This document shows, piece after piece, positions 1 through 19,891 of a DNA stretch of 31,186 nucleotides. The notes below the pieces were generated by a model that worked only from the letters and a program-made list of their open reading frames with translations, did no database searches and was not told where the DNA came from. Source of the stretch: Thoreauomyces humboldtii. Lineage: Eukaryota > Chytridiomycota > Chytridiomycetes > Spizellomycetales > Powellomycetaceae. The stretch is taken from NCBI GenBank assembly GCA_027596035.1, contig JADGJA010000197.1, positions 1 to 31,186 on the forward strand, in the 5' to 3' direction. The stretch's first letter is position 1. The number at the start of each line of letters is the position of its first letter. The translations under genes and the position numbers were made by a program.

Positions 1-72
1 GCCCCCTACATGTACCGTGGCCCTGCCGGGTGCTTGGTTCAACTCCAACACCTTGGCTTCATCTAGCCCATT

Positions 73-1176: not shown

Positions 1177-1201
1177 GTGTGTTTGTGTGTGTGTGTGTGT
1201 T
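1176..1201. repeat. GT microsatellite
   Basis: An almost uninterrupted run of GT dinucleotides (one TT interruption) lies immediately upstream of the proposed ATG at 1176. On the minus strand it would read as Thr-His repeats, which argues against a start further upstream. Confidence 0.9.
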
Positions 1202-1460
1202 CCGCGTCTTCTCTGCATACCAGCGCTTATCTGGATGTAGAAGAAAGCAAAATTGTGTTCCCTCTGCAGATCGTGGTCTAGACTAACGCAGCGAAACATT
1301 AAGAAGGGCAGCCCCAAGCGATCGGCGCATGAACAGAGCTCAGGTGCGGTCAACTTGGTCTGCAACGGTTGTTTGAAGCTCAGCTGGTGTTCAGGTGAGC
1401 TTCAAAGAAGAAACAGAGATTGATGTGACGGAATGGACCCGAGGAGTGAGCAGCTTAGGC

Positions 1461-2283: not shown

Positions 2284-2469
2284 GGTTACTTTTTTTGCTG
2301 TCGTTCTTTGTTCCTTGTCTATTGCCTTCCGAAAATAAAAGCCTGTCCGGTTGCGTTTGCAAAAGATTTTTATATGTCGCAAGGTCGAAGGCCGTTTCCC
2401 TTTGCCAACTCGACACCGCTTCTGCCGAGGTAGTGCGCATCTCCGAGTTCACCTGCCTCCTTCTACCTG

Positions 2470-2829
2470 CTACAGCTCGATGAGCAAGATATCCAGGCCT
2501 TCTACGGTTGAAGTAACACGTTCGATCATATGTAAGAGCAGGTGGACTTGACAAAGAGTTTCCTTATGCACTTCCGAATCGGTTTTACCTACGTGCTTCG
2601 GCAGCCTGTAAACCATTTCGGTAGCGATGTGAAGGGCACTGAGGTGTTTCCTTACGTTGGTAAGGCCAGCGCACAGCCTGTCAGAGAAATCAAGGATACA
2701 CCTCTCAGATCGCGCGTCTCCCTCCTCGGATTTTGCATCCCCCTGGGCAGATCGTGCGTCTCCCTCGTCAGATCTTGCGTCTTTCTCCCATTGGTTGCCA
2801 TCACGGCGCAGGTTCTGTGAATGGGTCAT
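2470..2829 (-). CDS. hypothetical 119-aa protein with DARSxxG heptapeptide repeats
   Basis: The N-terminal third contains about 3.7 copies of a 7-residue acidic/basic repeat (DARSDEG, DARSAQG, DAKSEEG, DARSE). The C-terminal 75 residues are predicted helical with regularly spaced hydrophobics (LTNVRKHLSALHIATEMVYRL and HLLLHMIERVTSTVEGLDILL). The ATG at 2829 lies about 50 nt downstream of a nine-T tract. It sits head-to-tail with the small helical gene at 2056-2283. I recognise no family. The repeats look intrinsically disordered and could be a flexible charged linker; that is inference. Confidence 0.5.
   Translation of the reverse strand: MTHSQNLRRDGNQWEKDARSDEGDARSAQGDAKSEEGDARSERCILDFSDRLCAGLTNVRKHLSALHIATEMVYRLPKHVGKTDSEVHKETLCQVHLLLHMIERVTSTVEGLDILLIEL
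2701..2781. repeat. 21-bp minisatellite coding the DARSxxG repeat
   Basis: About 3.7 tandem copies of an imperfect 21-bp unit remain in frame within the 119-aa gene. The copies vary at several positions, so the array is not recent. Confidence 0.75.
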
Positions 2830-3303: not shown

Positions 3304-4380
3304 ATGCCATCATCCAACCCAGACCTGTCCATTCAGGCTTTGACCAAAAAGGAACTCTATGAGATCGTACCGAGATGCTGGCCCGATCGGCTCCTCATCG
3401 CTAAGGATAAGGTGGGCTCAAAGAAGAACAGCAAGATATTTTACTGCTTCCGCACCCTTGCTGACTTTCTCAAAACCCTGCATGACGAATGCTCTGACAG
3501 ATGGTATTACGAGCTGATAGAGGGGGATCAACCGGCCGTGATGTACTTTGACATTGAGTGGTATCAGACGTGTGAGCCCTTTCCGTCCCCGCAAGACATA
3601 GTGCGCGAGATCATCGTGCAATTCCATAACTTCATGTCACTTAACAGCGTGGAACATGCACCAAAAGTAGCTGACTGGCTGCTGCTATGCGCCAACTCCA
3701 CAAAGCAAAAAGTTAAGTACTCATATCATTTGAGTTGCCGGGCAGGGTGGTTCCTCAATAGTTCCGATGAACGTAAAAACCTCCATCGTGCCTTTGCCTC
3801 ATACCTGCAGGAAAGTGACTCGCTTCTGTGCAGATTAATGCGGAAGGGAGGAAGTCAGGGACACCCGCTCGATCCCAGTGTGTACTCCGGATGGCAGCAG
3901 CTTAGGACCATCTGGTCTACCAAAATGGGAAGCGATCGAATGCTGGTACCGGTCGATCTTGACGGTTCTAGGTTGGAGATATCCGGTACACTGCAAAATA
4001 GTAAGTATTTTGTGACGTACATTGAAGCACATGAGAGAGCGTTGGATCTCAGCCTACTAGGAGTTGTAAACCCCACGCACTCGGTCCCAAACAAAAGCAA
4101 GCGTCATCCTCCTATGCGGCACGACGGATCCCTGAAAGTTTCCGACAGCCTCGAGCACCTGCTGGTAACTTCGCCAGTATCGACTAAGACCATTGCGGAC
4201 AATGATAGCACCATAGAGTTCTATCTGAAATGCATACCGAATGACGGAGCAGGGCAACCGTGGGAGGTTTACTTTGGCATTGTTGCCGCCTTCCAACGTG
4301 CGGGAGGTAAATGCAAGCCTCTTGTTAGTCCTTTGTTATGCATTGATGGACTTGAGCGCCCAGCTCGCGTGTATGCTTAA
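3304..4380 (+). pseudogene. herpes/PrimPol-type primase domain (AEP), N-terminal half of a primase-UL9-type helicase gene, truncated by an LTR-like insert
   Basis: This is an archaeo-eukaryotic primase of the UL52/PrimPol type. Motif I is MYFDIEW (D83, E85). Motif II is KYSYHL (S140-H142). Motif III is LDPSVYSGWQQLR with a downstream STKMG (D190, R201, K207), matching the DxxVY...R...K pattern of the family. Residues about 250-336 resemble the post-primase linker (QPWEVYFGIVAAFQRAGG). The genuine frame is lost at 4334, where a ~200-bp LTR-like element begins; the last 15 codons and stop at 4380 come from that insert. The UL9-type helicase resumes just beyond it on the same strand. The natural product was probably one primase-helicase protein of about 1,040 residues, a known architecture in large DNA viruses. 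A 22-nt GT...TTAG segment (4307-4328) could be an intron that puts the two halves in frame. Confidence 0.85.
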
Positions 4381-4530
4381 ACAGCTTGCACAGCCACCCC
4401 TTCCCTGCCTCCATATCTCTTCCCTCTTTTTCGCCTAGCGCTAATAAAAAAATACACATCTTCTGTCAATCTACATAGCGTTGAGCAGTTTCCACCACTG
4501 AGCACTCCCTCCTCGGATCCACGCTCAAGA
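4334..4530 (+). mobile_element. solo-LTR-like element, copy 1 (197 bp)
   Basis: It begins TGTTATGCATTGATGG and ends CACGCTCAAGA. It is flanked by the 5-bp direct repeat TCCTT at 4329-4333 and 4531-4535. A second copy of 205 bp at 17728-17932 is nearly 90 percent identical by eye and has a different 5-bp duplication. TG at the start, TGTT/AAnA ends and 5-bp target duplications fit a solo long terminal repeat of a Ty1/copia or Ty3-type element. The final CA is not intact (AAGA here, AATA in copy 2), which could be independent mutation of AACA. It contains AATAAAAAAA, a possible polyadenylation signal. There is no internal retrotransposon sequence in the window. Confidence 0.75.
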
Positions 4531-6635
4531 TCCTTCCCGAAGACAAGACCACGGTTATAGCCCAGTCTCCAATGGCCAGTGGTAAGACGTATGGGATGGC
4601 ACAGCTGATTCTGGCTACGCGACCAGCTCGCGTACTAGTTGCCGCGTCACGCACCACTTATGCCCAAAACGTGACTGCCGACCTGAATGCTAGGCTGCCG
4701 GTGAAGTTCCGATCTTACCACAAGGTAAGTGGCGACTTGGGCGAGGTCTCCTTCCTCGTAATTCAAATGGAAAGCCTTTGGCGCTTATCAGAAGCTGCAC
4801 CCTACGATTTGTTGCTCATAGACGAGGTTGAAGCTTGTCTCAAACAGTTCAGCTCCCCAACCATGCTCACCGCCTCTGGAAGGCTGATTAACAATGCAGT
4901 TGCATTCCAGAATATCTACAAAGAAGCCAAGCGTAGGGTGCTTTTGGACGCCTTCCTGTCGCAGCGCACAATCGATGTTGCCGAGTCTCTGGCAACCAGT
5001 ATCGACCCATCTGTCGATTCCGAAAGTGTTATTGTTACCGTCAACGAGCAGCTTCCGCCCCCATGTCAAGCTCTTCAGTACGCACGTTACGCAGTCTGGG
5101 AAGCAAATCTGCTGTCCGCTATCAAAGACGGAAAGCGTGTGGTTGTGTTTTGGGGCTCCAAAAACAAAGGAGAAGATTTTGAGAAGAGATTGAGACGCGG
5201 TCACCCCGAAACGAGACTGAAATTCTACCACGGGGCTGCCAACGATGATTTGGACAAGGATTTGAGCAGCGTCCGTGTTAAATGGGTTGAGCTGCAGGTT
5301 CTCATGTACACGTCGAAGGTCACAGTGGGTGTAAACTTTGACGTCAAGAACCACTTTGACCTCATGTTCTTTTACGGCTGTTCGGGAGGCTCTAGCGCTC
5401 GAGATGGGATTCAGGCATCGAAACGTGTGCGATATTTTAATGACAATACATTGCACTACTATATTAGTGGAGGTAGCTCAGGCCAGGTCGGTGCCGCGAC
5501 CATCGAAATGATAAAAGACAAGTTAGCAAACAAAAGAAGGCAGATCCAAGCACTCGATGTGGTGGTGGCCTCTCGCTACGCAGAGGATGCCCGAGAACGG
5601 CTTTATCACCAGCTGGGGCTGTCTTCTGAGTGGGGTGACGAACAGGAATGGCTTATTCGACTCCACTTACAGAACCTTCTCGAGGAACATAAGTCGAGTG
5701 ACAACTTTGCTAAGGAATTCCGGGGCTTCCTGCGGCGAACTGGGTTCACTTGCCACTTTGATGCAGAAACCATCGAAGGCATAGCAAACGTGAAGATGAA
5801 CACAGGTCTGGCCTACGAGGAGATTCCAGAGATTGATCCCGCACGCCTTGACGTCTTCCTGAACCGCACGCTGATCAAGACCGCCACGGCTGTGGAGAAA
5901 CTAATGATAACCAAATATTACTTTCGTTGCCAACTGGTTACGCTGCCCACGGAGGTTGAAGCGCGGCTATGGACATTTTGGATGAATCCTTTAGATCGGA
6001 AGCGGCTCCAGAACATCAAAAAAGAGACAGTGTCGTCACCAGAGCGTATTCACGCTCAGGACCGAAGAAATGTTCGTTTGGTCCCGTTTATGCCTGTCAC
6101 AGGGTCTCAGTTTTATTATGTGAAGAAGCTTTTAGAAATCATTGGGGCCGAGCTGTCGGCAGACACAACCACACTGGTCCCCATGCGGACCATCGAGGAG
6201 CTTCCTGAGAAACTTGATGCGCTGTGGCAAGAGCTTCCTGACGCATTCGAATTCAGGGGCACTCCATCCATGCCCAGCGAATTAAGACCGTGTGACGTTA
6301 AGCGACGGGCGTTAGAACTGACCAACAAGACTCTAACGGCTTGGAGCAATAGTCGGCTTGTTGCGGGCAAAGAAAACCGGCGACAGGTAACGGTAGGTGG
6401 CAAGAAAAGAAACTTTTACGAAAATTACACCATAAGAAATAAGTTCGAAGAAGCGTTAAGCGAAGTGAACGGCTCGGCTTATCCTGTCCATACGCTATGG
6501 CAATCCACGGATCCCGCCTTGAACGCTTCGCGTAACCCTGCTTTGAAAGCCCCCGCCGAACCGAATTCGCTAGAAAATATCATATACTCTGCGCAAGTCC
6601 TCATCCTAGCTATTTTGATTCGATCCCACACTTGA
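4531..6635 (+). pseudogene. UL9-type origin-binding superfamily 2 helicase (Herpes_ori_bp family), C-terminal half of the primase-helicase gene
   Basis: The frame is open from inside the LTR-like insert to 6635. The only early ATG (4572) is the Met of the P-loop itself (SPMASGKT), so it is not a natural start. Numbered from that Met, motif II is LLLIDEVE (residues 81-87, DEVE box), motif V is VLMYTSKVTVGVNFD (243-257), and motif VI is RDGIQASKRVR (277-287). These are characteristic of herpesvirus origin-binding helicases and their relatives in giant viruses and fungal elements. The roughly 380 C-terminal residues are not recognisable; they may bind DNA. The body is free of stops, so the insertion may be recent or the helicase part still under constraint. 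The probable role was melting the replication origin; an array of inverted repeats starts about 50 bp downstream. Confidence 0.85.
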
Positions 6636-6680
6636 GCATGTATATACATACAGCAATGCCAAAAGTAGTGTCTGCATCCA

Positions 6681-7120
6681 AGAAATTAGAGATCTCTTGT
6701 AAATATCCTGTACCGAGCAGGTATAGGTCAATCTCCATTACGGCAAATTAAAAAAAAAATAGTTTAAGCTTCCAGTTTCTCGATCATGCTCTCTTCCTGA
6801 AAAAGAATGGAGATCGACATGCAACTATCTTGTATCTATATACTGTACGGTGCAGGTCGATCTCCATTACGCCACTCGAATGAACGCATCCTTTTTTTTA
6901 TTGACCAGGCTTCTTTTTGAAAAAGGATGGAGATCGACATGCAACTATTTTGAATCTATATACTGATGGGTGCAGGTCGATCTCCATCGCGGCACTCGAA
7001 TTCAATGGGGGCTTTCAAAATACTTCTTTTTTCCATGCAAGACTTCTCTCAGAAATGGAGACGGAGGTCGACCTGTAATTCTCTTGGATTATTACACTTC
7101 TTGGTGCAGGTCGACCTTCG
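6681..7120. repeat. array of four iterated inverted repeats, candidate replication origin or regulatory array
   Basis: Units 2 and 3 have 17-nt arms ATGGAGATCGACATGCA (6807-6823, 6927-6943) and TGCAGGTCGATCTCCAT (6851-6867, 6971-6987). The arms pair at 16 of 17 positions around a 27-nt AT-rich loop, and the units are exactly 120 bp apart. Unit 4 (7062-7077 with 7105-7120) pairs at 14 of 16 positions around GGTCGACC. Unit 1 (6686-6738) is degenerate. Each unit is followed by a GCCACTCGAA- or CGGCACTCGAA-like box, and homopolymeric A or T tracts separate them. The array directly follows the UL9-type helicase. Palindromes with initiator boxes next to AT-rich DNA are typical of origins, but here that is inference; foldback repeats or terminators are alternatives. 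Confidence 0.7.
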
Positions 7121-7149
7121 CAGTGGGGCAGTGTGAATTCGAAGATTTG

Positions 7150-7500
7150 TGATTGACTCGTCTTGATGCTGATGTTGACTTCCGGAGATTCAGTGCGTGT
7201 GAACCGCACCAAACGTAAAGCTGTGTTCAGTTGCTTACGGCAACACAAAAAAAACCGCAGGCTCCCATGCGGTGGTGGGAAGACTTGGAGATGTCGAGCA
7301 ATCGGCAGACCCGGTTACGAATAAATAGCTAATGTAATAAATATGTTAACTAATAGGTTGATTTCAGCGAGCTATATGTACTAGAGTGGCTGCTGTACAG
7401 TGGCCCTAGTCAAATGATCGTCGTTAGAGAAGCGCCTTCACTGTCAAGCAAACAATAAATGCGGTATGTTCTGATACTCCATTTTTACCGTTTAGACGTC
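7150..7500. other. intergenic stretch, possible junction between viral-like block and host DNA
   Basis: No coding potential or clear repeat is visible. Base composition changes from the AT-rich array to GC-rich sequence after about 7500, where host-like codons begin. The element boundary may lie here, but I find no target-site duplication. Confidence 0.3.
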
Positions 7501-7516
7501 CCGTGAGTCCTTTAAC

Positions 7517-7787
7517 TGGGCAGCGGAACGCTCCGTGTCGACCGCGACGTCGCTATCGTGGGTCTCTCGGCGGAGGACCGGCAGAGCCTTCCCGGGACGA
7601 GCAGCTACGAACACGCCTACCACACCAACATGGTCGCGCTGTTCAAGCTCAGGTGATTCACCCGGCATGGGTCAGGGTCGCCGACGACCTCCACAAAAAT
7701 GTGGACTCTGTCCCAAAAGAGGAGACTGATGCTCTGCGGCCTGCGGCTCGACGGCTCCTCCGTCGCAAATTTGCAATCCTGCGCTGA
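7517..7787 (+). pseudogene. remnant of a host-like coding sequence (frameshifted)
   Basis: Two overlapping plus-strand frames both look like real protein and join near 7648. The first reads VDRDVAIVGLSAEDRQSL then HTNMVALFKL. The second continues VIHPAWVRVADDLHKNVDS and RRLLRRKFAIL to a stop at 7787. A single-base frame change is needed between them. Codons are C/G-ending as in the neighbouring ABC transporter. No start codon is visible upstream, so the 5' end is missing. I cannot name the family. It may be the tail of a host gene whose front was lost when the viral-like block arrived. Confidence 0.4.
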
Positions 7788-7793
7788 ATGAAC

Positions 7794-8227
7794 ACGGGAA
7801 CGCTTGGTCTCAAGACTTGGCCCTCCTTTAGGTTACCCAGCGGCTGGGTTCACGGCACATGCCTCACGCGACGTTACGTTCGTGGGGTTCGGAGGATCGG
7901 ACTGGCCTTTGACGGAGGGGCGGAGGGGCGGAGGGCTGTGGACGAGTGCAAGTTGAGCCGCTCTTTTCGACCGCTGTCCCTTCATCACTTTCTTACCGTT
8001 AAACGTGTCCTTTCGTTACCCGGTACGTCCTTGGCGTTGACTCTGACTACTCTTGTCATGCTCATCTCATCTTGCTCCATATAAAAGCCGTTCTCTTTGG
8101 CTTCCATCTGACTTCCCTCTACGCCAAGCCCTAACCCACCATGGGCTCTTTCTCCACTCCTCGCCGCCCCGTCGACAGCGCGTCGGTTGACCTTCTCGCA
8201 CCCACAAACACGACCGTCTCGCGCAAC
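7794..8227 (+). repeat. 434-bp direct repeat, parent copy (ABC transporter promoter and first 29 codons)
   Basis: This segment, from ACGGGAACGCTT to CTCGCGCAAC, recurs at 14317-14742 in the same orientation, nearly identical. The parent copy has one extra 8-bp unit (GGGCGGAG) in a short tandem run near 7917-7935. It covers the promoter with TATAAAAG, the 5' leader and the first 29 codons of the ABC transporter. Confidence 0.95.
8080..8087 (+). promoter_or_regulatory. TATA box of the ABC transporter gene
   Basis: TATAAAAG lies 54 nt before the start codon, which has a good context (CCCACCATGGGC). A pyrimidine-rich leader separates them, as in many fungal promoters. Confidence 0.6.
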
Positions 8228-11200
8228 TTTTTAACCTTCCTCACCTTCTCATGGATGACCCCGCTCCTCAAGCTCGGGAATCAGAGGCCCTTGGAGACAG
8301 AGGACCTCCCCAACGTGCCCCGCTCCAGCCAGGCAAAGAACCTTGCCAACTCCCTCGACCCTTTCTTCCACAGTCTGCAAAGTCATCTCCAGACTCCCAC
8401 CACTGTCGCCAAGCCTTCGTTCGCCCTGTCTATTTTCCGTCTCTACTGGAGCAAGTCGGTCCTCTCGCTCTTCCTCAAGCTGGTCAACGTGGCTTCTAAC
8501 CTCCTCATGCCCTATCTGATCTCGGATGTCATCAAGGTGCTTGCTGCGACGGATGCACCCAAGGATACCTGGTTCCAGAGCATTTATGCTTATGCTGGAG
8601 TCTACTTTGCGCTCTCGCTGTTTGGAGCGGTGGCTGGATATGCGGAACGTGCAATCTGCATCGACATCTTCATCCAGGTGAGCGAGCAAAGGAGACACAG
8701 AGTTATGTACTTCTGCATAGCACTTGTTTTGATTTTTTTCCCACGTCCCCATGCTCACTCTGCTACCTCTGCAGACCCGCGCCATCCTCATCGCAGCAGT
8801 CTACGGCAAGAGTCTCCGTCTGTCCCCAACCGCCCGCGCAACCTACAAGGCCGGCACAATCAACTCCCTCGTCGACGTCGATGCCGTCGCCGCCGCCGAC
8901 TTCAATGAAAACTTCAATGGATGTCTGGCCGCCATCAGCCAGGTCGCTCTGTCCCTCTGGCTTCTCGCTCGAGCCCTCGGGGTGACAACATGGATCGCGA
9001 CAGGCACTTGGCTCTTACTCGGACTCATGATCGGGGGCCTTATGCCCCTGATGGGAAAATCCCAGAAAGCATACCTCGCGGCCTTGGACGAACGCACGAG
9101 GGTCCTCAGAGAGTTCCTGTACGGCGTGTCGGGACTGAAGCTTGAAGGTGCCGTTCCGGGTTTCCTCAAGCGCATCGAGAAGGCAAGGTCACAGCAGCTC
9201 GTCGCATTGTCCGGCCTCACCTTCGTCCTGGCCATGATCTTCTCGTTCCTGGTCGCTCAGCTGACGGCTCTCTCTACCGTCACCATCGTCGGCTACGACA
9301 AACTCGGTGGGCAGATCACGGCAGAGAATGTGTTCCCGATCCTGGGCTACCTTGGCGCCTTGACCGTACCTTCGGGAAGCCTGATGCATTACCTGGCTCA
9401 AACCGTCCAGGTCTTCCCCTCCATCAACCGTCTCACGGCGTTTCTCTCTGCCAACGAGGTCACTCCTGGAGAGCTCACCAATATGGTAGAAGAGAAAGAC
9501 CTCGAGGCTCCTGCAGTGAGCCTCGACGGTGCGTGCTTCAGCTTTTCCCAGGCTGACGAGCCAGAAGACAAAGACACCAAGGAAAAGATCGTCGTCGCGA
9601 AGGTCACTGACACGAAAGAACCTGTTGCCAAGGTCGCGCCTGCGGGTTCGGGCGCGACTGACGGCGACGCCACAACTCCCGCCCCATTCACGCTTTCGGA
9701 TCTTTCACTGTCCATCCCTCGCGGCTCGCTCGCCGTCGTGGTCGGCTCTGTCGGGTCAGGCAAGAGCGCCTTCCTCTCGGCTCTGGCAGGCAGCATGCAC
9801 AAGACCTCTGGCACCGCAACGGTTCGCGGCACCGTCGCTCTGTGTCTCCAATCCCCCTGGATCCTCAGTGGATCGGTCCAGGACAACATCTGTGGTCTCT
9901 TCTCCGCCACGGGTGGCGGACGTCAGGAGGCTCTCGCTGCTGCAAAGAGCGCCTGTCTTGACCAGGATCTGGAGGTCCTCGGGGGATTGGACGCTATCGT
10001 AGGAGAAAAGGGGGTGCAGCTCTCTGGAGGTCAACGAGCAAGAATCGCCCTTGCGAGAGCGATTGCATCAGACAGCTCGGTTCTCCTGCTCGACGATCCC
10101 CTCGCGGCCCTCGACGCTCGTGTCGGAAAGATCATCTTCGAGGACACACTTTGCAAGGAGCTCAAGGACCGCACTCGAGTCATAGTGACCCATCAGCTGC
10201 AGTTCGCGGCACGCGCCGACATCGTTATCGTCCTTGACGCCGGTCGGATCGTTGAGACCGGTGCATTCCGGACCCTTTTAGCCGTCCCCACTTCTCGCCT
10301 TTCATTCCTAATGAAATCGTACCGAATCGATGATCTCGACGCCGACGTCGATGCCCTCACATCTCACGTCCTCGCCGCTAACCTCGTACCTACCATCGCC
10401 GATGATGAACGAGCGAAGTCCAAAGAGAACGATCTTGAAAATGCCCGCAAAGCTGTCAAGGAGTTCCATGCCAAGAAAGCCGTCGCCGAGGATCGTCGAG
10501 TCGGTCGAGTCGGTTCCTCTACCTACGAAGCCTTCTTCCGATCTTCATCACCTACCCTCCTCGCCATCGCGCTCCTGACCTTCCTAGCATCGACCGCCTC
10601 ATCGGCTTGGCAATCCATTCTTCTTGTTCAGTGGAGCGTTGAGTCGTCGAGCTGGACGGACGGACAGTACTTTGAGATTTTCTGCGCCACGGGCGTCATT
10701 CGCGCGGTTACCTACATTGTTCTTATCGTCGCGTATTTCTACTCGACGTTTACTGCGTCGAAACAGTTCCATGACAAGGCTATGGCGGGACTTGCTTGTG
10801 CCCCAATGTCCTGGTACGATGATCAGCCAATCGGAAGAATCATGAACAGGTATGTTATCATCTCTATGTTTCTTTCAATCGAGCAGCCAACTGACTAGTT
10901 TATGTCCATTCAAGAATGACAGCAGACGTCAAGGAGCTCGATCTCGATTTCTCCATGGTGACGATGAACCTCCTCATTACACTTAGTTTCCTTTTGACGT
11001 CTATCATCAACCTCGCATACGCCACGCCTTACATGTTGATAGGATTCGTCGTCCTCACCCTCCCCGGAATCTACATCTTCAAGTATTATCAGAGTTCCTA
11101 CCGAGAACTAAAACGTCTCAACTCGATCCTCCGATCCCCTCTCGCCTCCCACGTCAGCGAATCCCTCAACGGAATCTCAACCATCAAAGCCTACAGGGCA

Positions 11201-12443
11201 TCCAAACGCTTCGTGGAACGCCAGCAGCAGACCACAGATCTCGCCAGCAAAGCCTCGTTTCTGCGAACTTCGGCTGAATTCTGGTTGGGCGTCAGACTGG
11301 CTGTCCTGACCTCGCTTGTCATCCTTGCCTCGTTGCTGCTGGCCGCTGCGGGCGTGTTGTCGAGATCTGCGATCGGACTGTCACTTGTTTCGAGTATGTC
11401 GCTCACGGATATTCTCATTACCACTCTGTCTGCCACCAGTGCGACCGAGGCGGCTTTCAACGCCGTCGAGAGGTTAGACCATTACGCCCATGAGCTGCCG
11501 GCAGAGTCCAAGCAGCTGGATGCGGAGGGCACACCGAAGGACTGGCCGAGGTCCGGTGACATCGTTTTCGAGAGCGTTCAGCTCGGGTATTCGGCCATCG
11601 CAAAACCGGTTGTGCAGGACTTGTCCTTGACCATCGCGTCTGGGGAACATCTGGGAGTGGTTGGAAGAACGGGTGCAGGTGAGTGTCTCTTCGCACGATG
11701 TCATTCGCCTGCGCACTGGTAGTTGACCAACCAATTAACCGAACTTAACCGAACCCGCTATTCTCTCTTTTGTTACAGGAAAAAGCACGCTCATGCTCTC
11801 CCTGTTCCGAATCATCGAGCCCCAAGCCGGTCGCATCTTCATCGCCGGAACCGACATCTCAAGCCTCTCCCTCCAAACCCTGCGAACGGGCATAACCATC
11901 ATTCCTCAAGAACCCGTGCTTTTCTCGGGCTCCTTCCGATACAATCTGGACATGGAATCCATACACACAGACACGGACATCTGGGCCGCGCTTACCCTCA
12001 CAGGGATGAAGGACCACATATCTCGCCTCCCCGACAAGCTCGAGTCCCTTGTCGCAGACTCGGGAACCGATCTATCAGCCGGCCAACGACAGCTCATCTG
12101 TCTCGCCAAAGCCGTCCTTGCCCGACCCCGAATTTTGATATTGGACGAAGCGGCATCCGCGGTGGATTCCGCGGCCGATCAGCTCCTCCTCTCCGCTATC
12201 CTAACCGAGTTCAAGGACACCACGGTCGTTTCCATCGCCCATCGACTTGGGTCGGTGGCTGGGTTCGATAGGATCGCGGTCGTGGATGCGGGGCGGTTGG
12301 TGGAGGTTGGAAGTCCGGCGGATCTGTTGGATGTGGACGGTGGGGGTTTCAAGAGCATGGTGGAGGCGACGGGTATGGCGAACGCGGCGTTGATTGGGGA
12401 GATTGCTAAGAGGAAACGGAATAGGGAGGACCATGGAGAGTGA
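8141..12443 (+). CDS. ABC transporter, subfamily C (MRP/YCF1-like), four exons
   Basis: Exons 8141-8677, 8775-10849, 10915-11678 and 11779-12443 join in frame to 1,346 residues. The introns are 97, 65 and 100 nt, all GT...AG. The product is a full-length exporter with two transmembrane domains and two ATPase domains, without the extra TMD0. The first ATPase domain has Walker A GSVGSGKS, signature LSGGQRARIALARA and Walker B VLLLDDPLAALD. The Asp after Walker B, instead of Glu, is typical of the degenerate first site of this subfamily. The second domain has Walker A GRTGAGKST (split by intron 3), signature LSAGQRQLICLAKA and Walker B ILILDEAASAVD, and should be the active site. Likely role: ATP-driven export of organic anions, conjugates or drugs across the plasma or vacuolar membrane. 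It appears intact, and its 5' end has been copied to 14317-14742. Confidence 0.92.
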
Positions 12444-13785
12444 CCGACTTTTTTTCCTTAACGTCAATGATCATGCATAGATGGTCGATGCTTTTTCTGT
12501 TCGACGTTTTGTTTCCAGCTCATGCAACTACAACTGACGAGGTCTATTGAATTGACCTGGTTAAGCTCAGCAATGAGCAACGATAATAGATGGGGGCTGT
12601 CAGCACGACGATATCTTTGACGCAAACGGCACGTTCCGTCTTGTCCGACATCGCAGGCTTTTGTTCGCCCAGAGTGCCGAACGGTCTGAGAAAGAGAGAT
12701 GGTCGCACACTGGGTCACTCATTCGGAAACGTCCTCCAGACGTATCACGATGACCAGATCTGCGAAGCAACACGAAAGACCGCCGCAGATTTTGTCACGG
12801 GAGATTCTTGGACCCCCTCTCTTATTGAGAGCGGTATCTTTCACTTGACGACTAGAGAAAGCCCTGCTCGTGAAAGCCAATTACGGTGAACGCGCTGGCC
12901 GAAATGTTGCACAAGTGGCTGCGCGACACTTCACTCGCTTTCGCTGGCGTCTGATAGACTACCAACCCTTTCTATGTGAGATCTCGGGCTTAATCATACA
13001 CATTTCTCCGGTTCGCAGCTATAACATAACCCACAATGCACTGACGTTGAGCAAAAAGTCATGTTTCGTTCAGCCTGATGAAAGCGCATCGCCTGATGAG
13101 GGCGCGGCAAAGCTGGAGATGTTGCCCTGGGAGGGTAAAACCTCGCTGAACGAGTACCGCTGATTGCTACTAGCAGAAATGGAAGCTAAGAAGCAGATGT
13201 AAACAGAAAGAGGTGGAATCTTGGTGGAACAAGTGATCGGGTTGCCTCCGAGGAAGGAAGCGAGCTAAATGATTTACTTGAAGACCTGCAGATCTTTGGT
13301 CATCAGCTGACCGACAGCGCGGTAAGAAACTTTTAGTGAAGCCAAGAGAGTGGTAGGGATGGAACACCACAAGTCCAGACCGCATTCGGACCTGACCGCG
13401 AACTGGTGCTCGTCAGCTTTAATTTCGAGTTCCCGGATATAAAGTGTTCGGAACCCCGTCTGGATTTCGGATTTAAATAGATGTTCGATTATGAGGACCG
13501 CGCGTTATACAGCCAGCCCAATGTAGGTGCCGGGTCGGGCGGGGCAGACGCCACTGCAATGTGTGTGGTGTCTTGAAATATGCAGTTGCGCGCGGACGGA
13601 AACTCACTGTTCTCGTTTCCTTCTTCGTAACAAGAGTGCTCGAGCGATTAAGGCCTCACCTCCCAATTTCCATTCTCTTTGCAGAAAGCATCCTCCTTTT
13701 CGGCGCGACGGGTAAGGGTTCGAGAATCTTGAGATCCTGGAAACCACAGCAGCTAACCTATTGTCTCCTTGTAAAGTTGAAATTC
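12444..13785. other. intergenic region without recognised genes
   Basis: Only short open frames without recognisable motifs are present on either strand. A TTTAAATAG box near 13470 could be a promoter element for the small gene at 13786. I see no RNA gene or repeat of note. Confidence 0.4.
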
Positions 13786-14049
13786 ATGCCGACCATTCAA
13801 ATTCCGGCCACCGTCGACCATTCCAACTACGCAGAGCGGGAACGCATCGTCATGGACATCCTTCGAGATTCACAATCCGTCTTGCGTGGGATGAATGATC
13901 TCTGGAGTTTCGTTATGGACGGCAAAAACAACCTTTATGGCGATGGCATGGAGGGCAACAAAGTTCAATATCTCTGCGCATGTAACAAAGTCACAGCCCA
14001 CCTGAGAGCAACCCACGCAGAACTTTACAACCTCACCCGAAAACCTTAG
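13786..14049 (+). CDS. hypothetical 87-aa protein
   Basis: The frame starts at ATG 13786 (MPTIQIPATVDHSNY) and ends at TAG 14049. The product is largely helical by eye, with hydrophobic spacing around IVMDILRDSQSVLRGMNDLW and YLCACNKVTAHLRATHAEL. There is no membrane segment or known motif. The frame is also open upstream to 13561, but that part has little coding character and contains GT...AG-like signals, so the shorter start is preferred. It begins the right viral-like block and lies upstream of a TATA-like ATATAAGG at about 14052. It may be the counterpart of the left 119-aa gene by position, but I cannot show homology. Confidence 0.4.
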   Translation: MPTIQIPATVDHSNYAERERIVMDILRDSQSVLRGMNDLWSFVMDGKNNLYGDGMEGNKVQYLCACNKVTAHLRATHAELYNLTRKP

Positions 14050-14124
14050 CATATAAGGCAGCCCTTTCCCTTTTCACTTTCCGCAACATGATGTATAATC
14101 TTCACATTTCAGACTGGATGTGAA

Positions 14125-14328
14125 ATTCATCAAGATGGGCAAAGCGTGTTGGAAAGAATGATACTCATGTTGACCAGCTCCCCGACGAGATCTTCCAGTG
14201 CGTCCTGCACGTCCTCTGGCCGTGTGTACCGTCCTTCCGCCTTCAGACACTCCCTGAGGCTGTTTACCATTTTGTTCGGCTCCATCGGCACAACCTCATC
14301 AAAGATCTCTTCCTTAACGGGAACGCTT
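14125..14328 (+). pseudogene. F-box-like coding fragment cut off by the ABC promoter copy
   Basis: In the plus frame containing VDQLPDEIFQCVLHVLW the sequence resembles the start of an F-box (LPxEI...VL..LW) and has strongly C-ending codons like host genes. It stays open until TAG at 14326-14328, which is already inside the duplicated ABC segment that starts at 14317. The gene was therefore probably truncated by the duplication. A minus-strand frame over the same bases (14130-14336) is also open and cannot be fully excluded. Confidence 0.3.
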
Positions 14329-14742
14329 AGTCTCAAGACTTGGCCCTCCTTTAGGTTACCCAGCGGCTGGGTTCACGGCACATGCCTCACGCGACGTTAC
14401 GTTCGTGGGGTTCGGAGGATCGGACTGGCTTTTGACGGAGGGGCGGAGGGCTGTGGACGAGTGCAAGTTGAGCCGCTCTTTTCGACCGCTGTCCCTTCAT
14501 CACTTTCTTACCGTTAAACGTGTCCTTTCGTTACCCGGTACGTCCTTGGCGTTGACTCTGACTACTCTTGTCATGCTCATCTCATCTTGCTCCATATAAA
14601 AGCCGTTCTCTTTGGCTTCCATCTGACTTCCCTCTACGCCAAGCCCTAACCCACCATGGGCTCTTTCTCCACTCCTCGCCGCCCCGTCGACAGCGCGTCG
14701 GTTGACCTTCTCGCACCCACAAACACGACCGTCTCGCGCAAC
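14317..14742 (+). repeat. 426-bp direct copy of the ABC transporter promoter and first 29 codons
   Basis: It matches 7794-8227 almost perfectly apart from one missing 8-bp unit and a few substitutions. It carries TATAAAAG, the leader and the start codon at 14656. The match stops abruptly after CTCGCGCAAC, where unrelated sequence starts. The copied start codon opens a 33-codon frame that ends at TAG 14755-14757. Confidence 0.95.
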
Positions 14743-14757
14743 AAAGCTTGCTCATAG
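14656..14757 (+). pseudogene. truncated ABC transporter 5' fragment
   Basis: ATG 14656 begins the same 29 N-terminal residues as the intact transporter (MGSFSTPRRPVDSASVD and onward), then four foreign codons and a stop. No membrane or ATPase part remains, so it cannot be functional as a transporter. Its promoter may still drive a transcript into downstream DNA. Confidence 0.85.
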
Positions 14758-15388
14758 TCTTAGGTCGTCCCATCCGCATTAACTCTTCATCCTTTGGTTG
14801 CCTTCCTCCTCTTCCTCCTCGTCTGATTGCCTTGTTTTCTTGCTACCCGTCCTCCCCTGTCCTTTTCTGTACGTACGCTTGCGTCACCCTCACGCTCAGT
14901 CTGTATGTATCTCAATGCTTTTTCCACAAGCGCTTCGTTCGATCCACATTGTTCCGGACGCCGGACCCGACGAGGCTACGGCTGCACGTGGAGAACGGCG
15001 TTCTTTTGCATAGATCATGGAAGAAGGTATCGGCCGTGCTTCACTGTCGAATGGAATGCGTGTCTCGTTGATGGAATCGGAGGGGGGTTTCCCAAAAGGT
15101 GTCAATACGAGGTTTTAACAGGTCTTTTTGCAAACTGCTTCCTGGTGATGGCCATGCGGAACATGGATCCGAAAGCACATGCGTATGGAAGGAAAGGTAG
15201 CAGGCAAGGTTCCGCATCAGTACAAACGCTTCTACCCACATTTCGAAACGAAGCAGAACCTTCCCAAGCGTGACTTACTTCCTGCGCTGCAGCCTATCTC
15301 GCGCGTTTAAAGCACCAAGTACTCGTGCTCTTAACACTTTGGGATTCACTTGTATTAAATTGTCTCATATTTCAATTCGTACAGGTTA
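14758..15388. other. segment with a block homologous to the region upstream of the left primase
   Basis: 15011-15063 matches 3099-3151. A second short match (GCGCTGCAG...CGCGCGTTTAAA) lies at about 15284-15311, separated by roughly 165 extra bases not present on the left. An ATG at 15018 opens a 33-codon frame whose middle (LSNGM) is shared with the left copy, but the left frame has a stop, so coding is doubtful. Confidence 0.45.
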
Positions 15389-15781
15389 ATGCTTGCATCG
15401 GCGTTGGCTTCCTATTCACCAGGGCCGGGGTCAGCGCCAGAGTCAGCCAACGGTGTCTTTTTAATCAGCTCGCGAAGAGTTCTCAGTATCGCCTCGTGCG
15501 TAAGTACCAAGCAGCTACTTCGAGAGTTCATCGACGGTCATTTAATGGTGCGCGATCTTCAACAGCGCTTGAAAGTTGCCAAGAGCCGTCGACAAACAGT
15601 GGAAAAAGACCTTGCACAAATCTTTGCTGAGGCTAACATTCAGACGGTGGACATACCCGGATTTCGTTTATATCGGTACGACCAAAGACTGGTCCCCTAC
15701 CATCTGCCTCAACGAGCCAAGTCTTGCGGCACCCTGAAACAGACTGCTTTGGTGGGGAAACCTTGTGTAAAAGACTCTTGA
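15389..15781 (+). CDS. small helical protein with RLYRY-RLVPYHL tail (right paralogue)
   Basis: The 130-aa frame starts at ATG 15389. The conserved part is residues 43-108: helix LLREFIDGHLMVRDLQQRLK and following charged heptads, then the tail DIPGFRLYRYDQRLVPYHL. This matches the 75-aa protein at 2056-2283. The N-terminal 40 residues have no counterpart on the left and may be non-native or come from a different exon. Codon differences in the tail are almost all synonymous relative to the left copy, so both were selected as proteins. The function is unknown. It is the only protein-coding gene clearly shared by both viral-like blocks. Confidence 0.7.
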   Translation: MLASALASYSPGPGSAPESANGVFLISSRRVLSIASCVSTKQLLREFIDGHLMVRDLQQRLKVAKSRRQTVEKDLAQIFAEANIQTVDIPGFRLYRYDQRLVPYHLPQRAKSCGTLKQTALVGKPCVKDS

Positions 15782-15946
15782 GCTTGTGTTTTATTTGAAG
15801 TGGGAGTTTCTAGAGTTTAATATCTCTTTTGAAAGACAAAATGCTTTGTCCGTCGGAAATGACAATACAGTGTGTGTGAAGATAGTTATCTTCATCAAGC
15901 CTAAATTGGGGGTCGAACCCGGTAGCTAGCAAAACGTACGGCTAAT

Positions 15947-16171
15947 TCACACGCATCTACCAAGTGAAGCGCTCGCATCCAGCTGTTTTCTCCTCTTCTC
16001 TATCGTGATTGGCATCTTGCCCGTATATTCGCCACTTCCTGCGAGAAGCATGGCGGTGGAGCGACTAATCTTGAGCATCTGCGCCAGAGCTCGCAAACTT
16101 GGCGCCTGAAAGCTTTTTTGAAGGCCATGAATGTCATAGATTGCGATGTAGTCAAACTCTGAGGCTGGCAT
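15947..16171 (-). CDS. NUMOD1-like DNA-binding protein (about 74 aa)
   Basis: From the Met at 16171 (MPASEFDYIAIYDIHG) the protein is a single NUMOD1-like unit. It has a short beta-hairpin, IAIYDIHGLQKSF, then a helix-turn-helix-like part, SLRALAQMLKISRSTAMLLAG, and the typical ending GEYTGKMPITI. NUMOD1 modules are DNA-binding units normally attached to homing endonucleases of the HNH or GIY-YIG type and are common in viruses and mobile introns. Here it stands alone, downstream of the D5 helicase on the same strand. It could be a small regulator or a leftover of a homing nuclease. An upstream extension to 16237 is open but less typical. Confidence 0.55.
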   Translation of the reverse strand: MPASEFDYIAIYDIHGLQKSFQAPSLRALAQMLKISRSTAMLLAGSGEYTGKMPITIEKRRKQLDASASLGRCV

Positions 16172-16367
16172 CAAAGACAGAGAGTTGCGTTGTATGAAAA
16201 CACGCCATAGAATAAAACTGTAATGTTCTGCACGCACTGCTTAGGGCTTGTCATGGCGTATTCAAAATCGCTAGTGCTGTGAAAGAGCTGTCGAAAACCT
16301 ATCACAACGTGAAAATTGTGGCACTGAAAGCTCAGCGAGGGCGTCCCGTCACCGCAATACGAATTGT

Positions 16368-17722
16368 TTATATGAAGGTCGTTGCAGTCAGCCGAAGATT
16401 TTTGTAGCCACTAGAGTTCAAACCGCCAATTTCGAGTCCTTTTGAATAGACGAACCTTGGATCTGTTTTGAGCTTTTCGTTGAATCCCAGTTGTTTAATC
16501 TGGTGCGCCTCAGTCTTTTGCCACTCGGCAAAGGCTTCCCATAGCGGCTTGCTGTGCGTTTTGTACTCAGGACCGATCTGACACTTTTCTGCAAGAAACT
16601 TCCCAGCTGTATCCTGAGATTCCTTGTAATCACGATTGTATTGAGCAATTTTCTCTGGCACGTGTTCGAGACCCTCCTGCAGCCACACGTAATAGTAATG
16701 GATGAGCATGTGCATGAAGGCCACCTTCCAGGGCCCGTTGATTTTTTCCATAACGCTCTTGTCAGCCTCGAAAACAGCATCGCCTTGCGCATCCTGTACC
16801 AGATGTTCAACTGGCTCTACTGGCTCAACCGTGTCAACCGCCTCCTGTGATGTAAGTTTATAAGTCTTGGCCACAAAGCGACTTTCAAACGGAACCATTC
16901 GGATCTTCCGCCAAATTCCGTGGTCCGTCCCCTTTATGGTCAACGGGTTGTTGGTGCACAGGATCAGTTTAAAGTGAGGGTAGAACTCTCGCGCCTCCTT
17001 AAACAGTGGGCGAAAGTCTATCTTATCCGCACCCAAGATACCTTTCATGAATGCTTCGTTGACACTTTCCCCTGAGTTTGTCTCTTGCATCATGAGGGCA
17101 CGTGCCCCTACGGCCTTGTTCATTCCCGGGGTGGCATTGTCGGCAGGAGGCGACTTTTGAGTCAGAATCGTGGCTTTCATCGAAGCTGCATACTGACCCA
17201 GAGTCGCGGTGACAAGCGCGAGCAGGGTACTCTTCCCGTTTGCTCCGCCTCCAATCCATACATGCAATTTTTCGTCGCGCGTATCTCCGGAAACACAAGA
17301 TCCAAGGAGCTTGAGCACGTAATGGCGGACAGCATCGTCGGGAAGGATCTTGCTGATGAAGGCAGTTACCTCGGTAGTATGCTCTTCCACGGATTCCGAG
17401 TAGTCGTAAAGCACCGAGAAAGTGACATAGTCACTGGGCCGCCCGGGCCGGAACCGGCGCTCCTTCAGATCAAAGATGCCGTTAGCAAAGCCAATGAGGT
17501 ACCGGTTCTGATCCAAGTTTCGTTCAAGTTCATCGCTGCGCTCGTTGAAAAACAGCGCACATTCGTCGACAAAGTTACGCTGGCTCCCATGATTTTGGAA
17601 GCTCGTTATCAGCTTGTCAATGTTGAAAGCAATCTTTTTCGGAATGTCATCACCGCTGCGGCTGTATAGCTTGCGTGCTTTTAAGTAAGGCTCGAGGTTC
17701 TCGTCGGACGACAAGTAGCGCA
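16368..17722 (-). pseudogene. D5-type superfamily 3 helicase, C-terminal half of a primase-helicase gene split by an LTR-like insert
   Basis: The frame ends at 16368. It contains a D5_N-like region (LIGFANGIFDLKERRFRP, residues 77-94) followed by the superfamily 3 helicase core. That core has Walker A WIGGGANGKST (157-167), Walker B-like ARALMMQE (209-216), sensor FKLILCTNN (252-260) and an arginine-finger region GIWRKIRMVPFE (270-281). It would form a hexameric replicative helicase like poxvirus D5 and its relatives in large DNA viruses, virophages and plasmids. The 5' end abuts the target duplication of the LTR-like element. On the other side the primase half continues in the same frame, so this was one protein of about 1,045 residues. 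No stop or frameshift is present in this half. Confidence 0.88.
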
Positions 17723-17727
17723 TCAAG

Positions 17728-17932
17728 TGTTATGCATTGATGGACTAGAGCGCCCAGCTCGCATGTATGCTTAGATAGCTTGCACAGCCACCCCTTCGTC
17801 GTCTCCATATCTCTTCCCTCTTTTCGCCTAGCGCTAAAAGAATGACATACAATACACAACAGCTTTGTCAATCTACATAGCGTTGAGCAGTTTCCACTAC
17901 TGAGCACTCCCTCCCAGGATCCACGCTCAATA
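17728..17932 (+). mobile_element. solo-LTR-like element, copy 2 (205 bp)
   Basis: The element is the same family and plus orientation as 4334-4530, starting TGTTATGCATTGATGG and ending CACGCTCAATA. It is flanked by the 5-bp direct repeat TCAAG (17723-17727 and 17933-17937). It splits the minus-strand D5 gene. Removing the element plus one repeat leaves the D5 frame continuous with no other change, so the insertion is later than the gene. Confidence 0.8.
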
Positions 17933-19721
17933 TCAAGTAGGCAGCGCCAGGATCATGCTTCCAGCGGTTACCGTCAAAGACGTGCCACGCTGCTTGTCTT
18001 TCTCTGTTGCTCACAAAGAGGGTACCTTTCAGGTAGTAAAGGTACTTGGCGTAAGCCAAATGCGTGCCTCGAAAGGTGCTTTTGAAAAGCTGGTTGGCCT
18101 CCGCGTCCTCGAAATGTTGTGAATCGTCGTTGATTTCGTCCATAAAGGGGGAGTTCATTGCCAAAGCTTCACCGTCCACAATGATCGTGCGCTGGTCCAC
18201 ATACTGAAAGAGAACGTTAGTCACGCTGCTTGGCATCTGGAGACCGGAGGCACCTGACGGGTAGAATATCGTAGCATCTTGCTTGCAGCCGACAAAGCAC
18301 CCCTTTGAATTTGCTACAAGAAAGTTCTGAGGGTGTTCGTGCTTCTTGTCATGACAGGGACAGTGGGTATTCTCATGTAGCTCGCACACCCAGCCGACGC
18401 CAGTTTCACTGATCTTAGCAGATTTGAACTTCCAGTTCACCGTTGGTAGCTTCTTTGCTAACGCGCGAACTCCAGTTGCAAACGCTTTTCGTCCCTTATC
18501 GGAGGATTTCTCAACATCAACATTGGATATACCGTTATACGCTGCCAACAGCTCTTCCGGAAGATCAGCGAGACGAGTGATCTGCGTGACTGTCTTGCTG
18601 CATTCCGCGTTTGAGCACTTGAACCGGCAGCCATTGCTGGAGATGACTATGTACGGATTGTTGCTCCCATGTGTTCCACCTTTGATGTAGCACCTACGGC
18701 TTTTCGTCGAGAAGACCAGGGCCTTCTTTTCACGGTCCACAATGAACGAGTGGAACTGTTCCGTTAAATTGTATTGGGAACAGAAATAGCTGGTGGCCTT
18801 GTCAAGCAGGGCACTGTGCTCGGGTCCCGAAAGAACTTCTCTGCTGCTGTTGGTACCGGCGCTGCTAGCCCCAGCTGCCAGTGCTGCCCTGACCTTGGTC
18901 GTTCGGCGTGGCCCGGTTGCGGCTTTGCGCAGCTGATGCGCTCGACTGGCTTCATCACAGAGCCGCGTTAGATCTGCTTGGCGCCCTGGAATGATGCTGT
19001 AGTCGTCGAGATCCTTTCTCTCGATTGCACGCCGCACAAATGAAACGGTGTCCACCGGGGTATAAGCATAGCAAAAGGTGCCCTTGCCAAATCTCGCTTC
19101 GTATTCGGTCACATCTGTAAGTTTCAAGCCTTTCCCCTTGTGGCAGCCAAGAACGCGGAGGCCCGCGCCGTTGTACACGGAAGTGTCGAGCCACTCGCTA
19201 GCCTTCTCCGGTGGCAGGCATCCTTTGAACATCAAACGTTCCCGCAAACGCTCACAGAAGAACACTGCAATGCCCTTGTTCACGACTATCGCGGGACAGG
19301 TGACATGAAGCTTTTGAATGCAACCAAGGGAGACGAAGAGAGGTGTATCAGCAAAGTCTGCACCGTAGGTCGCAAGAATTTCTTCTTTGATTCCCTCCAC
19401 AACGGACCTGTTAGTTTGAAAAATTTCGTCCTTGGTTCCCATTTCTCCAGGCTTTACATCCCAATCGATGAACAGACGGAATTGCCCGTCTTCCGGCATG
19501 CGTTCGCTCAATACGCACGGACTCGAATTGATGTTGTCACCCGCAAGCTTGATTGCTGCAAAAAGCTTGTCATAGAGATCTTTGCGTTTCACCTCAGATG
19601 GCACACTCAACTTTGCATAGATGCCCTTGTATCCGGGAAAGTTGAAGTGTGTCTGATGCATCGTGGAGCCTGTCTCCATGCGCATCTGTCTGGTCAGCGC
19701 GCGGTATGCGTCATTTGCCAT
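17870..19721 (-). pseudogene. D5-type AEP primase, N-terminal half of the primase-helicase gene
   Basis: The start is ATG 19721 (MANDAYRALTRQ), after a nine-A tract about 50 nt upstream; the longer open frame to 19847 is less likely. Motif I is FRLFIDWDVKPG (D86, D88). Motif II is KLHVTCPAIVV (H139). Motif III is WLDTSVYNGAGLRVLGCHKGKG (D179, R189, K195). Later come candidate zinc ligands CRFKCSNAEC and a Cys/His cluster around CELHENTHCPCHDKKHEH. This is the primase of NCLDV D5-like proteins. The last 22 codons and stop come from the LTR-like insert. It would make primers for the helicase encoded by the other half. No internal stop is present before the insert. Confidence 0.88.
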
Positions 19722-19891
19722 GTTTGTATTCCTCTTCACGTTGCCTAACATTAGACAACGTTTTTTTTTCGGAGAATTAAAACGCAGCAGATGTTGTCTC
19801 GATTCCGGGTCGTATATGATCCTCAAATCAAGCGGGGCGCATCGCAACGTTTCGCTTGGGGCTCGTTGAAGCTACAAGATCGAAATTTGAA

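What the first reader, a model, noticed from the sequence alone, without database searches (positions are those of the whole stretch)
3304..19721. Two different DNA-virus-type replication modules in one fungal segment
A PrimPol/UL52-type primase with UL9-type helicase and a D5-type primase with superfamily 3 helicase lie 10 kb apart, together with small genes typical of viral or plasmid elements (GIY-YIG/T5orf172, NUMOD1). Both modules are known together in giant viruses, but they are not normal fungal chromosome genes. No capsid or packaging gene is visible, so this could be an endogenised virus fragment or a capsid-less plasmid-like element that has not been described.
Basis: partly seen in the sequence, partly recalled or inferred. 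Interest (0 to 1): 0.85.

Follow-up and report, generated by a model that had tools for sequence, protein, structure and literature searches.

The report
Broken viral replication genes in chytrid
A chromosome piece of the chytrid fungus Thoreauomyces humboldtii carries two broken, virus-type DNA-copying genes of different kinds, one followed by a repeated DNA element built like a herpesvirus replication start site; they are most likely leftovers of small integrated DNA viruses.

Summary
The window is contig C109 of a chytrid genome (Thoreauomyces humboldtii). It carries (A) a PrimPol-UL9 primase-helicase gene with four small genes and (B) a C962R-type primase-D5 helicase gene, about 10 kb apart with an ABC-transporter gene between. 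Both genes are broken: a solo Ty1/copia LTR with a 5-bp target-site duplication sits inside each. T5orf172 is supported; NUMOD1 is not.

Block A has a colinear second copy on C234 (dN/dS 0.12-0.43). Relatives occur in Geranomyces and Borealophlyctis. Module B groups with other chytrid proteins and two unnamed environmental ones. Other contigs hold polinton-like genes: C597 a weak capsid match and an A32 ATPase, C681 an integrase. Five of six contigs with a UL9-type gene also hold an SF3 (D5-type) gene or fragment.

New here: just after the UL9 gene in both A copies lies an array of 57-bp inverted repeats with AT-rich centres, built like herpes oriS; one genome search found it only there.

Best reading: decayed replication modules of polinton-like viruses, the UL9-type protein initiating at the array, the D5-type protein unwinding. 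Origin function is inferred. Each gene type is known; the pairing with an oriS-like array is a new variant.

The parts
562..1365 (-). T5orf172 / GIY-YIG-type ORF of block A; frame ends early relative to the C234 copy
   Evidence: Pfam T5orf172 2.5e-4; 66% identical to C234 copy, dN/dS 0.43 over 210 codons
1464..1898 (-). conserved small ORF of block A, function unknown
   Evidence: 81% identical to C234 over 133 codons, dN/dS 0.29; no Pfam match over a cut-off
2056..2286 (-). conserved small ORF of block A, related to the ORF at 15389-15781 in module B
   Evidence: 88% identical to C234 over 75 codons, dN/dS 0.12; 45% identical to module B ORF over 64 aa, E 2e-16
2470..2829 (-). conserved small ORF of block A, function unknown
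   Evidence: 82% identical to C234 over 119 codons, dN/dS 0.34
3304..4333 (+). PrimPol-UL9 gene, AEP primase half (the listed ORF runs on to 4380 inside the LTR)
   Evidence: AEP motifs; 86% identical to C234 over 338 codons, dN/dS 0.18; family profile hits human PrimPol
4334..4531 (+). solo LTR of a Ty1/copia element inside the UL9-type gene
   Evidence: 96-97% identical to both LTRs of C654; TSD TCCTT; C654 internal ORF hits RVT_2 5e-48
4572..6635 (+). PrimPol-UL9 gene, UL9-type SF2 helicase half
   Evidence: Herpes_ori_bp 2.1e-18; 84% identical to C234 over 687 codons, dN/dS 0.16
6719..7120 (+). array of 57-bp inverted-repeat units (3 complete at 6809-6865, 6929-6985, 7063-7119; a partial unit at about 6719); candidate replication origin
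   Evidence: one genome search finds it only here and beside the C234 copy
7794..14735 (+). ABC-transporter gene between the modules, flanked by a 0.42-kb direct repeat (7794-8220 = 14317-14735)
   Evidence: ABC_tran 4e-19; repeat
15389..15781 (+). small ORF related to 2056-2286; links modules A and B
   Evidence: similar upstream blocks at 3099-3221 and 15012-15311
16368..17726 (-). AEP-D5 gene, D5_N + SF3 helicase half
   Evidence: D5_N 2.4e-10, DUF5906 2.1e-7; tree
17728..17931 (+). solo LTR of the same Ty1/copia family inside the D5-type gene, antisense to it
   Evidence: 87% identical to the LTR at 4334; TSD TCAAG
17932..19847 (-). AEP-D5 gene, C962R-like AEP half (the listed ORF begins at 17868 inside the LTR)
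   Evidence: 83% identical to Geranomyces variabilis P0012; AEP_C962R 0.0088, below cut-off; AEP-type motifs

Best explanation
The window holds decayed, chromosomally integrated replication modules of small double-stranded DNA viruses of the polinton-like kind that infected or transposed in chytrids. Shown: the domain content; the second copy of block A and selection on its proteins; the LTR disruption; the relatives; and that other contigs of the same genome pair UL9-type and D5-type genes, one of them with capsid-like and A32 ATPase genes. Inferred mechanism: the PrimPol-UL9 protein is the initiator. It binds the inverted 15-bp arms of the 57-bp repeat units just downstream of its gene, melts the AT-rich centre and can prime; the D5-type SF3 helicase (with its own AEP primase in the window's version) then unwinds the fork, and a polymerase not present in the window elongates. 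Two primase-helicases would thus divide initiation and elongation rather than duplicate each other. In the window neither gene is intact, so this copy is a fossil. Odds: viral or PLV-type remnant 0.6; oriS-like role of the array about 0.5.
Against: No capsid, ATPase or integrase was found in the window ORFs that were scanned, and the capsid search of the whole genome did not hit C109. The window's genes are distant from those of the polinton-like contigs: D5 31-32%; UL9 21% over 245 aa against C681. No boundary, TIR or target-site duplication of an element was established for A or B. The capsid call on C597 is below Pfam's cut-off and found no relatives in IMG/VR. Covariation in the array is thin: one pair with a both-sides change, in two related window units; shuffles reach the paired percentage in 366 of 500 and the covariation score in 18 of 500. 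No protein-DNA binding data exist. The C-terminal part of the model is low confidence. Similar inverted repeats in C681 and C597 lie singly between genes, which also fits 3'-end hairpins.
Confidence: 0.6

Rival explanations
1. Fragments of an endogenised giant virus (Nucleocytoviricota, asfarvirus- or mimivirus-like) that carried both an F1055L/R8-type and a C962R/D5-type primase-helicase.
For: ASFV encodes exactly this pair (PMC10516667, passages); mimivirus R8 and ASFV F1055L have the AEP+SF2 architecture (PMC11253617, passages). Giant-virus markers are reported in Gonapodya, Allomyces and Rhizophagus (PMC5294986, passages). The D5 profile's best PDB match is C962R.
Against: No match to NCLDV capsid PF04451 or VLTF3 PF04947 in the genome, but neither search rang in any control, so this is weak. 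The paired modules elsewhere in the genome sit with polinton-like genes.
Confidence: 0.15
2. Block A is a capsid-less, plasmid-like or transposon-like replicon (T5orf172, three small proteins, PrimPol-UL9 initiator, origin array) that spreads on its own or as a passenger; module B is a separate element.
For: The same five genes and array recur in the same order on two contigs without a capsid gene in what could be read, all under purifying selection. The D5-type neighbour differs: AEP-D5 in C109, a D5_N protein with a different N-terminal half in C234.
Against: C234 1-10319 reads N, so one flank of the second copy is unseen. No mobility gene other than T5orf172 and no TIR or TSD was found. The element-sized unit was not seen outside contigs.
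Confidence: 0.2
3. Old viral genes kept by chytrids as host genes (domesticated).
For: D5-B relatives occur in Geranomyces, Fimicolochytrium and Nowakowskiella with a branching order that could be vertical; dN/dS is low.
Against: Both window genes are broken; copy number varies, with fragments on C16, C207 and C539; T. humboldtii has two A copies about as far from each other (84%) as from the Geranomyces ones (81-82%).
Confidence: 0.04
4. Assembly chimera joining unrelated contigs.
For: Short-read-like assembly; a 0.42-kb near-exact direct repeat at 7794/14317 and LTR copies could mislead an assembler.
Against: Each LTR has its own 5-bp duplication. The 0.42-kb repeat has both copies inside this contig, so a wrong join there would change the number of ABC-gene copies, not the A-B linkage (inference). 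C539 independently carries pieces resembling both sides.
Confidence: 0.03

Closest known systems
Prim-S2H replicase of Rhodomonas lacustris polinton-like viruses and a MELD virus (PMC12220804, passages)
   Same: Primase-polymerase, PriCT_2 and SF2 (ResIII-type) helicase in one protein; C234 P0001 shows AEP motifs, PriCT_2 (0.011, below cut-off) and Herpes_ori_bp (1.8e-20)
   Different: Sequence relationship to those proteins was not tested. Here it is fungal, followed by an oriS-like array and accompanied by an SF3-type gene on 5 of 6 contigs
African swine fever virus F1055L and C962R pair (PMC10516667, passages)
   Same: One AEP+SF2 and one AEP+SF3 protein in one genome
   Different: No other NCLDV core gene seen; whole-genome searches for two NCLDV families found nothing but had no positive control
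Herpesvirus origin-binding protein UL9 and OriS (PMC12543377, passages)
   Same: SF2 helicase core and best structural match; inverted boxes around an AT-rich spacer
   Different: Primase fused at the N terminus; arms of about 15 bp with a 27-bp spacer, several units in tandem; no sequence identity of the boxes was tested; binding unknown
Polinton-like virus integrated in the chytrid Spizellomyces punctatus (PMC7805220, passages)
   Same: Related chytrid host, integrated polinton-like virus
   Different: Not compared by sequence here; the window itself lacks a detected capsid gene
Mriyaviruses / yaraviruses (PMC11253617, passages)
   Same: AEP + UL9-like SF2 helicase in some Yaraviridae
   Different: There SF2 and SF3 helicases are reported as mutually exclusive; here the two kinds are found on the same contig in 5 of 6 cases

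Membership tests
Polinton-like viruses (Preplasmiviricota) | double jelly-roll major capsid protein | tested here: not met
   C597 capsid-like ORF searched over the genome: hits C597, C601, C712, C602, C565, not C109; a divergent capsid could be missed
Polinton-like viruses (Preplasmiviricota) | A32-type packaging ATPase | tested here: not met
   no Pox_A32 among the window ORFs scanned; not all window ORFs were scanned; C597 has one
Polinton-like viruses (Preplasmiviricota) | terminal inverted repeats | tested here: not met
   6 inverted pairs in the window, longest arm 26 nt, none framing the modules
Polinton-like viruses (Preplasmiviricota) | replicase of a PLV type (primase-SF2 or AEP-SF3) | tested here: met
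   types as listed in PMC12220804 passages
Nucleocytoviricota | NCLDV capsid (PF04451) and VLTF3 (PF04947) in the genome | tested here: inconclusive
   no match, but no control genome rang either
AEP + UL9-like SF2 helicase proteins (F1055L / R8 / Prim-S2H) | AEP catalytic motifs and SF2 Walker A/B in one protein | tested here: met
   intact C234 paralogue 1112 aa; D84, S141, H143, D191, G429-K430-T431, D509-E510 invariant in 7 of 7 aligned; PDB matches. The window copy is split
AEP + D5/SF3 primase-helicases (C962R / D5) | D5_N and SF3 helicase with an N-terminal AEP | tested here: met
   D5_N and DUF5906 over cut-off; C962R and D5 hits. AEP_C962R Pfam match of window and P0013 below cut-off, P0014 just over it
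Herpes-type (oriS) replication origin | inverted initiator boxes flanking an AT-rich spacer | tested here: met
Herpes-type (oriS) replication origin | bound and opened by the UL9-type protein | not testable with these tools
   needs a binding assay
Ty1/copia solo LTR (4334-4531, 17728-17931) | LTR identity to a full-length element, 5-bp TSD, no internal region | tested here: met

The most novel reading that the evidence does not exclude
Chytrids carry a replication cassette (T5orf172, three small proteins, PrimPol-UL9 initiator and its own herpes-oriS-like origin array) that moves between different small DNA elements and pairs with unrelated SF3 helicases, or replicates alone as a capsid-less replicon: a fungal element with a two-replicase, herpes-like initiation system.
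Probability: 0.2. Interest if true: 0.85.

Novelty: new variant of a known kind. Interest (0 to 1): 0.6.

Why it matters
No DNA virus of fungi has yet been followed through its replication, to my knowledge (recalled). If the array is the origin of a UL9-type PrimPol, herpes-style origin recognition would extend to small polinton-like elements of chytrids and give a sequence that can be tested by a simple binding assay. The recurring presence of both an SF2 UL9-type and an SF3 D5-type replicase on one contig (5 of 6) contrasts with mriyaviruses, where the two are reported as mutually exclusive (PMC11253617, passages), and suggests a split of initiation and unwinding. It also adds a chytrid genome in which polinton-like genes are present; a large published survey of integrated viruses left Fungi out (PMC10120064, passages).

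Tried and rejected
Ordinary fungal gene family: rejected for the modules because hits are to viral-type families and unnamed metagenome proteins.

Phage origin: tblastn of the AEP half against 50,697 phage records gave nothing. Some IMG/VR contigs with distant UL9-type helicases look like phages (L070: minor tail protein and PolA), so UL9-type similarity alone does not mean a eukaryotic virus.

IMG/VR scans: 6 of 8 used. A1 gave 9 loci; A2, the C597 capsid, the C681 UL9 and the C234 D5 protein gave none; the wider D5 alignment A5 gave 80 kept of 209, which I did not analyse further.

Array as terminator hairpins: not excluded. In C681 the single inverted repeats lie between genes. For block A, 3 and at least 4 units in tandem after one gene, with conserved sequence and fixed length, fit an origin better. 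Enrichment check (thresholds chosen): 15 repeats in 59,193 bases of UL9-type contigs (window 1-7300: 2; C234: 0; C597: 6; C681: 3; C16 20-32.6 kb: 4), against 2 in 94,264 bases of control stretches and 0 in the rest of the window. C234 scores 0 because its arms hold two mismatches; some of the 15 are unrelated designs. In one search (laxer), the window had 4 against 0 in three shuffles, one of the 4 lying elsewhere (1369-1409).

Circular permutation: in C207 the AEP fragment and the small ORF of module B stand in the opposite order to the window; one case, left as a note.

Vertical versus viral spread of D5: the tree (95 rows, P0100 and P0011 left out, quick method) cannot decide.

Element ends: searched by repeats and by comparison with C234; homology stops at window 509 and about 7117, but no TIR or TSD was seen there. 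The 77 bp at the window start recurs at 23 places and may be an assembly overlap.
Full report
What is there. The window is the whole of contig C109 (31,186 b) of a 20.67-Mb, 823-contig genome. The paralogue on C234 is recorded as HKX48_004612 of Thoreauomyces humboldtii, so the host is a chytrid. Two replication modules are present. Module A, on the plus strand, is an AEP primase half (3304 to the LTR) and a UL9-type SF2 helicase half (4572-6635; Herpes_ori_bp 2.1e-18), preceded on the minus strand by four small ORFs, one of them T5orf172-like. Module B, on the minus strand, is a C962R-like AEP half (to 19847) and a D5_N/SF3 half (16368-17726; D5_N 2.4e-10). An ABC-transporter gene lies between them, and an alpha/beta hydrolase and a haem peroxidase-DOMON gene to the right.

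Both genes are broken. A sequence of about 0.2 kb occurs in both genes and at 8 places in the genome. C654 carries two copies about 3.9 kb apart, flanking an ORF with a Ty1/copia-type reverse transcriptase (RVT_2 5e-48) and a 5-bp duplication CCGTG. The two copies in the window have 5-bp duplications TCCTT and TCAAG. They are therefore solo LTRs. In the UL9 gene, 71 residues of the C234 protein are missing at the same place. The T5orf172 frame also ends early relative to C234.

Block A is a repeated unit. Window 509-7117 is colinear with C234 (79-87% DNA identity in the long pieces), including five genes and the repeat array. Nei-Gojobori dN/dS between the copies is 0.16 and 0.18 for the two UL9-gene halves and 0.12, 0.29, 0.34 and 0.43 for the small ORFs, so the small ORFs are likely real genes and the copies separated while working. 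The UL9-type protein has relatives in Geranomyces variabilis (82%) and Borealophlyctis nickersoniae (43%). In the tree the Geranomyces protein and an unnamed one (P0002) pair (99/99), while the window and C234 are unresolved next to them.

Module B. Relatives: G. variabilis 83%, Fimicolochytrium jonesii 66%; with the D5 half, Nowakowskiella and two environmental proteins as well. In a 95-row tree these six form one group (SH-aLRT 99). Fragments lie on C16, C539 and C207. A and B share a related small ORF (45% over 64 aa) and similar upstream blocks (58 nt at 83%, 28 nt at 86%), a sign that they come from one element or one kind of element (inference). C539 holds pieces resembling both sides: a D5 fragment, 150 b resembling window 80-228, and a T5orf172-like ORF (52% over 46 aa).

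Polinton-like context in the same genome. C597 (13.4 kb) has an A32 ATPase (1e-7), a weak Capsid_N match (0.0056, below cut-off), a UL9-type primase-helicase and a D5-type helicase. C681 has UL9-type and D5-type genes and a chromo-domain integrase ORF; a further ORF looks like a tyrosine recombinase by eye only, with no Pfam hit. Relatives of the C597 capsid-like ORF lie on C601, C712, C602 and C565. C234 has, beside block A, a protein of about 900 aa with D5_N (9e-11) whose N-terminal half recalls TVpol by eye (name recalled, no match). UL9-type genes were found on six contigs, and on five of them an SF3/D5-type gene or fragment was found; C601 is the exception. On C16 these are fragments 12-17 kb away. 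The D5 proteins of C681 and C597 have no AEP part that I could see, so there the UL9-type protein would be the only primase (inference). The window's proteins are far from these (D5 31-32%).

The array. 174 b after the UL9 stop begins a set of units of exactly 57 nt: GGAG(A/G)TCGAC-N-TG(C/T)A, a 27-nt AT-rich centre, TGCA(G/T)GTCGA(T/C)CT(C/T)C. There are three complete units and one partial in the window; C234 has four complete units, then N. A genome search found it only at these two loci (that search skips common words). Arms pair in 91.4% of cells against 30-38% when slid. Covariation is weak: one pair changes on both sides, in two window units; the paired percentage is reached by 366 of 500 shuffles and the covariation score by 18 of 500. 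Spacers are 63-74% AT, arms 33-43%. This is the build of OriS: inversely oriented OBP boxes around an AT-rich spacer (PMC12543377, passages). The AlphaFold model of the C234 protein (mean pLDDT only 60.6) has HSV OBP with OriS as its top match. Other inverted repeats with AT-rich centres occur on C597, C681 and C16 with other arm sequences, partly as single copies between genes, so a 3'-hairpin role is not excluded.

How it most likely worked. Initiation by the PrimPol-UL9 protein at the array (inferred), unwinding by the D5-type protein (domain known, role inferred), elongation by a polymerase not in the window. The window copy cannot do this as it stands, because both genes are interrupted.

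Known and new. AEP+UL9-like SF2 proteins are known in mimivirus, ASFV, Ostreid herpesvirus and some yaraviruses (PMC11253617, passages) and in PLVs (PMC12220804, passages). AEP-SF3 and TVpol-SF3 are known in PLVs (PMC4642659, passages). PLVs in chytrids are known from Spizellomyces (PMC7805220, passages). I found no description of the combination with an oriS-like array in ten searches of the paper library, of which only listings and nine papers' passages were seen, and subscription journals and preprint servers are mostly not held. Hence: new variant of a known kind.

Noticed in passing
window 7794-8220 and 14317-14735: A direct repeat of about 0.42 kb (99-100% identical) flanks the ABC-transporter gene and holds its upstream region and first codons: a recent partial tandem duplication or an assembly effect.
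   Followed up: partly
L065 and L066 (IMG/VR 3300037485_001433, 34,654 b): A contig whose two ends give the same match, so apparently an inverted dimer. It encodes a UL9-type protein, a telomere-resolvase-like ORF (ResT/TelK 4.5e-11), an A32 ATPase (9e-17) and a GIY-YIG ORF (5e-7): possibly a virus with hairpin ends.
   Followed up: partly
C597 (L031, L032), C601, C712, C602, C565: Polinton-like capsid-type ORFs on five contigs of the host genome; several interrupted by stops.
   Followed up: partly
C234:17547-20321 (L027, L028): ORF of 925 codons with D5_N next to block A; N-terminal half recalls TVpol by eye; fragments on C16.
   Followed up: partly
C207 (L033 5243-7425): AEP fragment and the small ORF of module B stand in reversed order compared with the window.
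   Followed up: no
window 1-77: The first 77 b recur at contig ends and elsewhere, 23 places in all with partial ones, and at both ends of C597 in opposite orientation: assembler overlap or a repeat end.
   Followed up: partly
P0004 (Geranomyces variabilis): The Geranomyces UL9-type protein record is 687 aa, the same length as the window's second half and with the same first residues, so that copy may be interrupted at a similar place.
   Followed up: no
L070 (IMG/VR 3300028761_000003): A phage-like contig (minor tail protein, PolA) with a distant UL9-type helicase.
   Followed up: no
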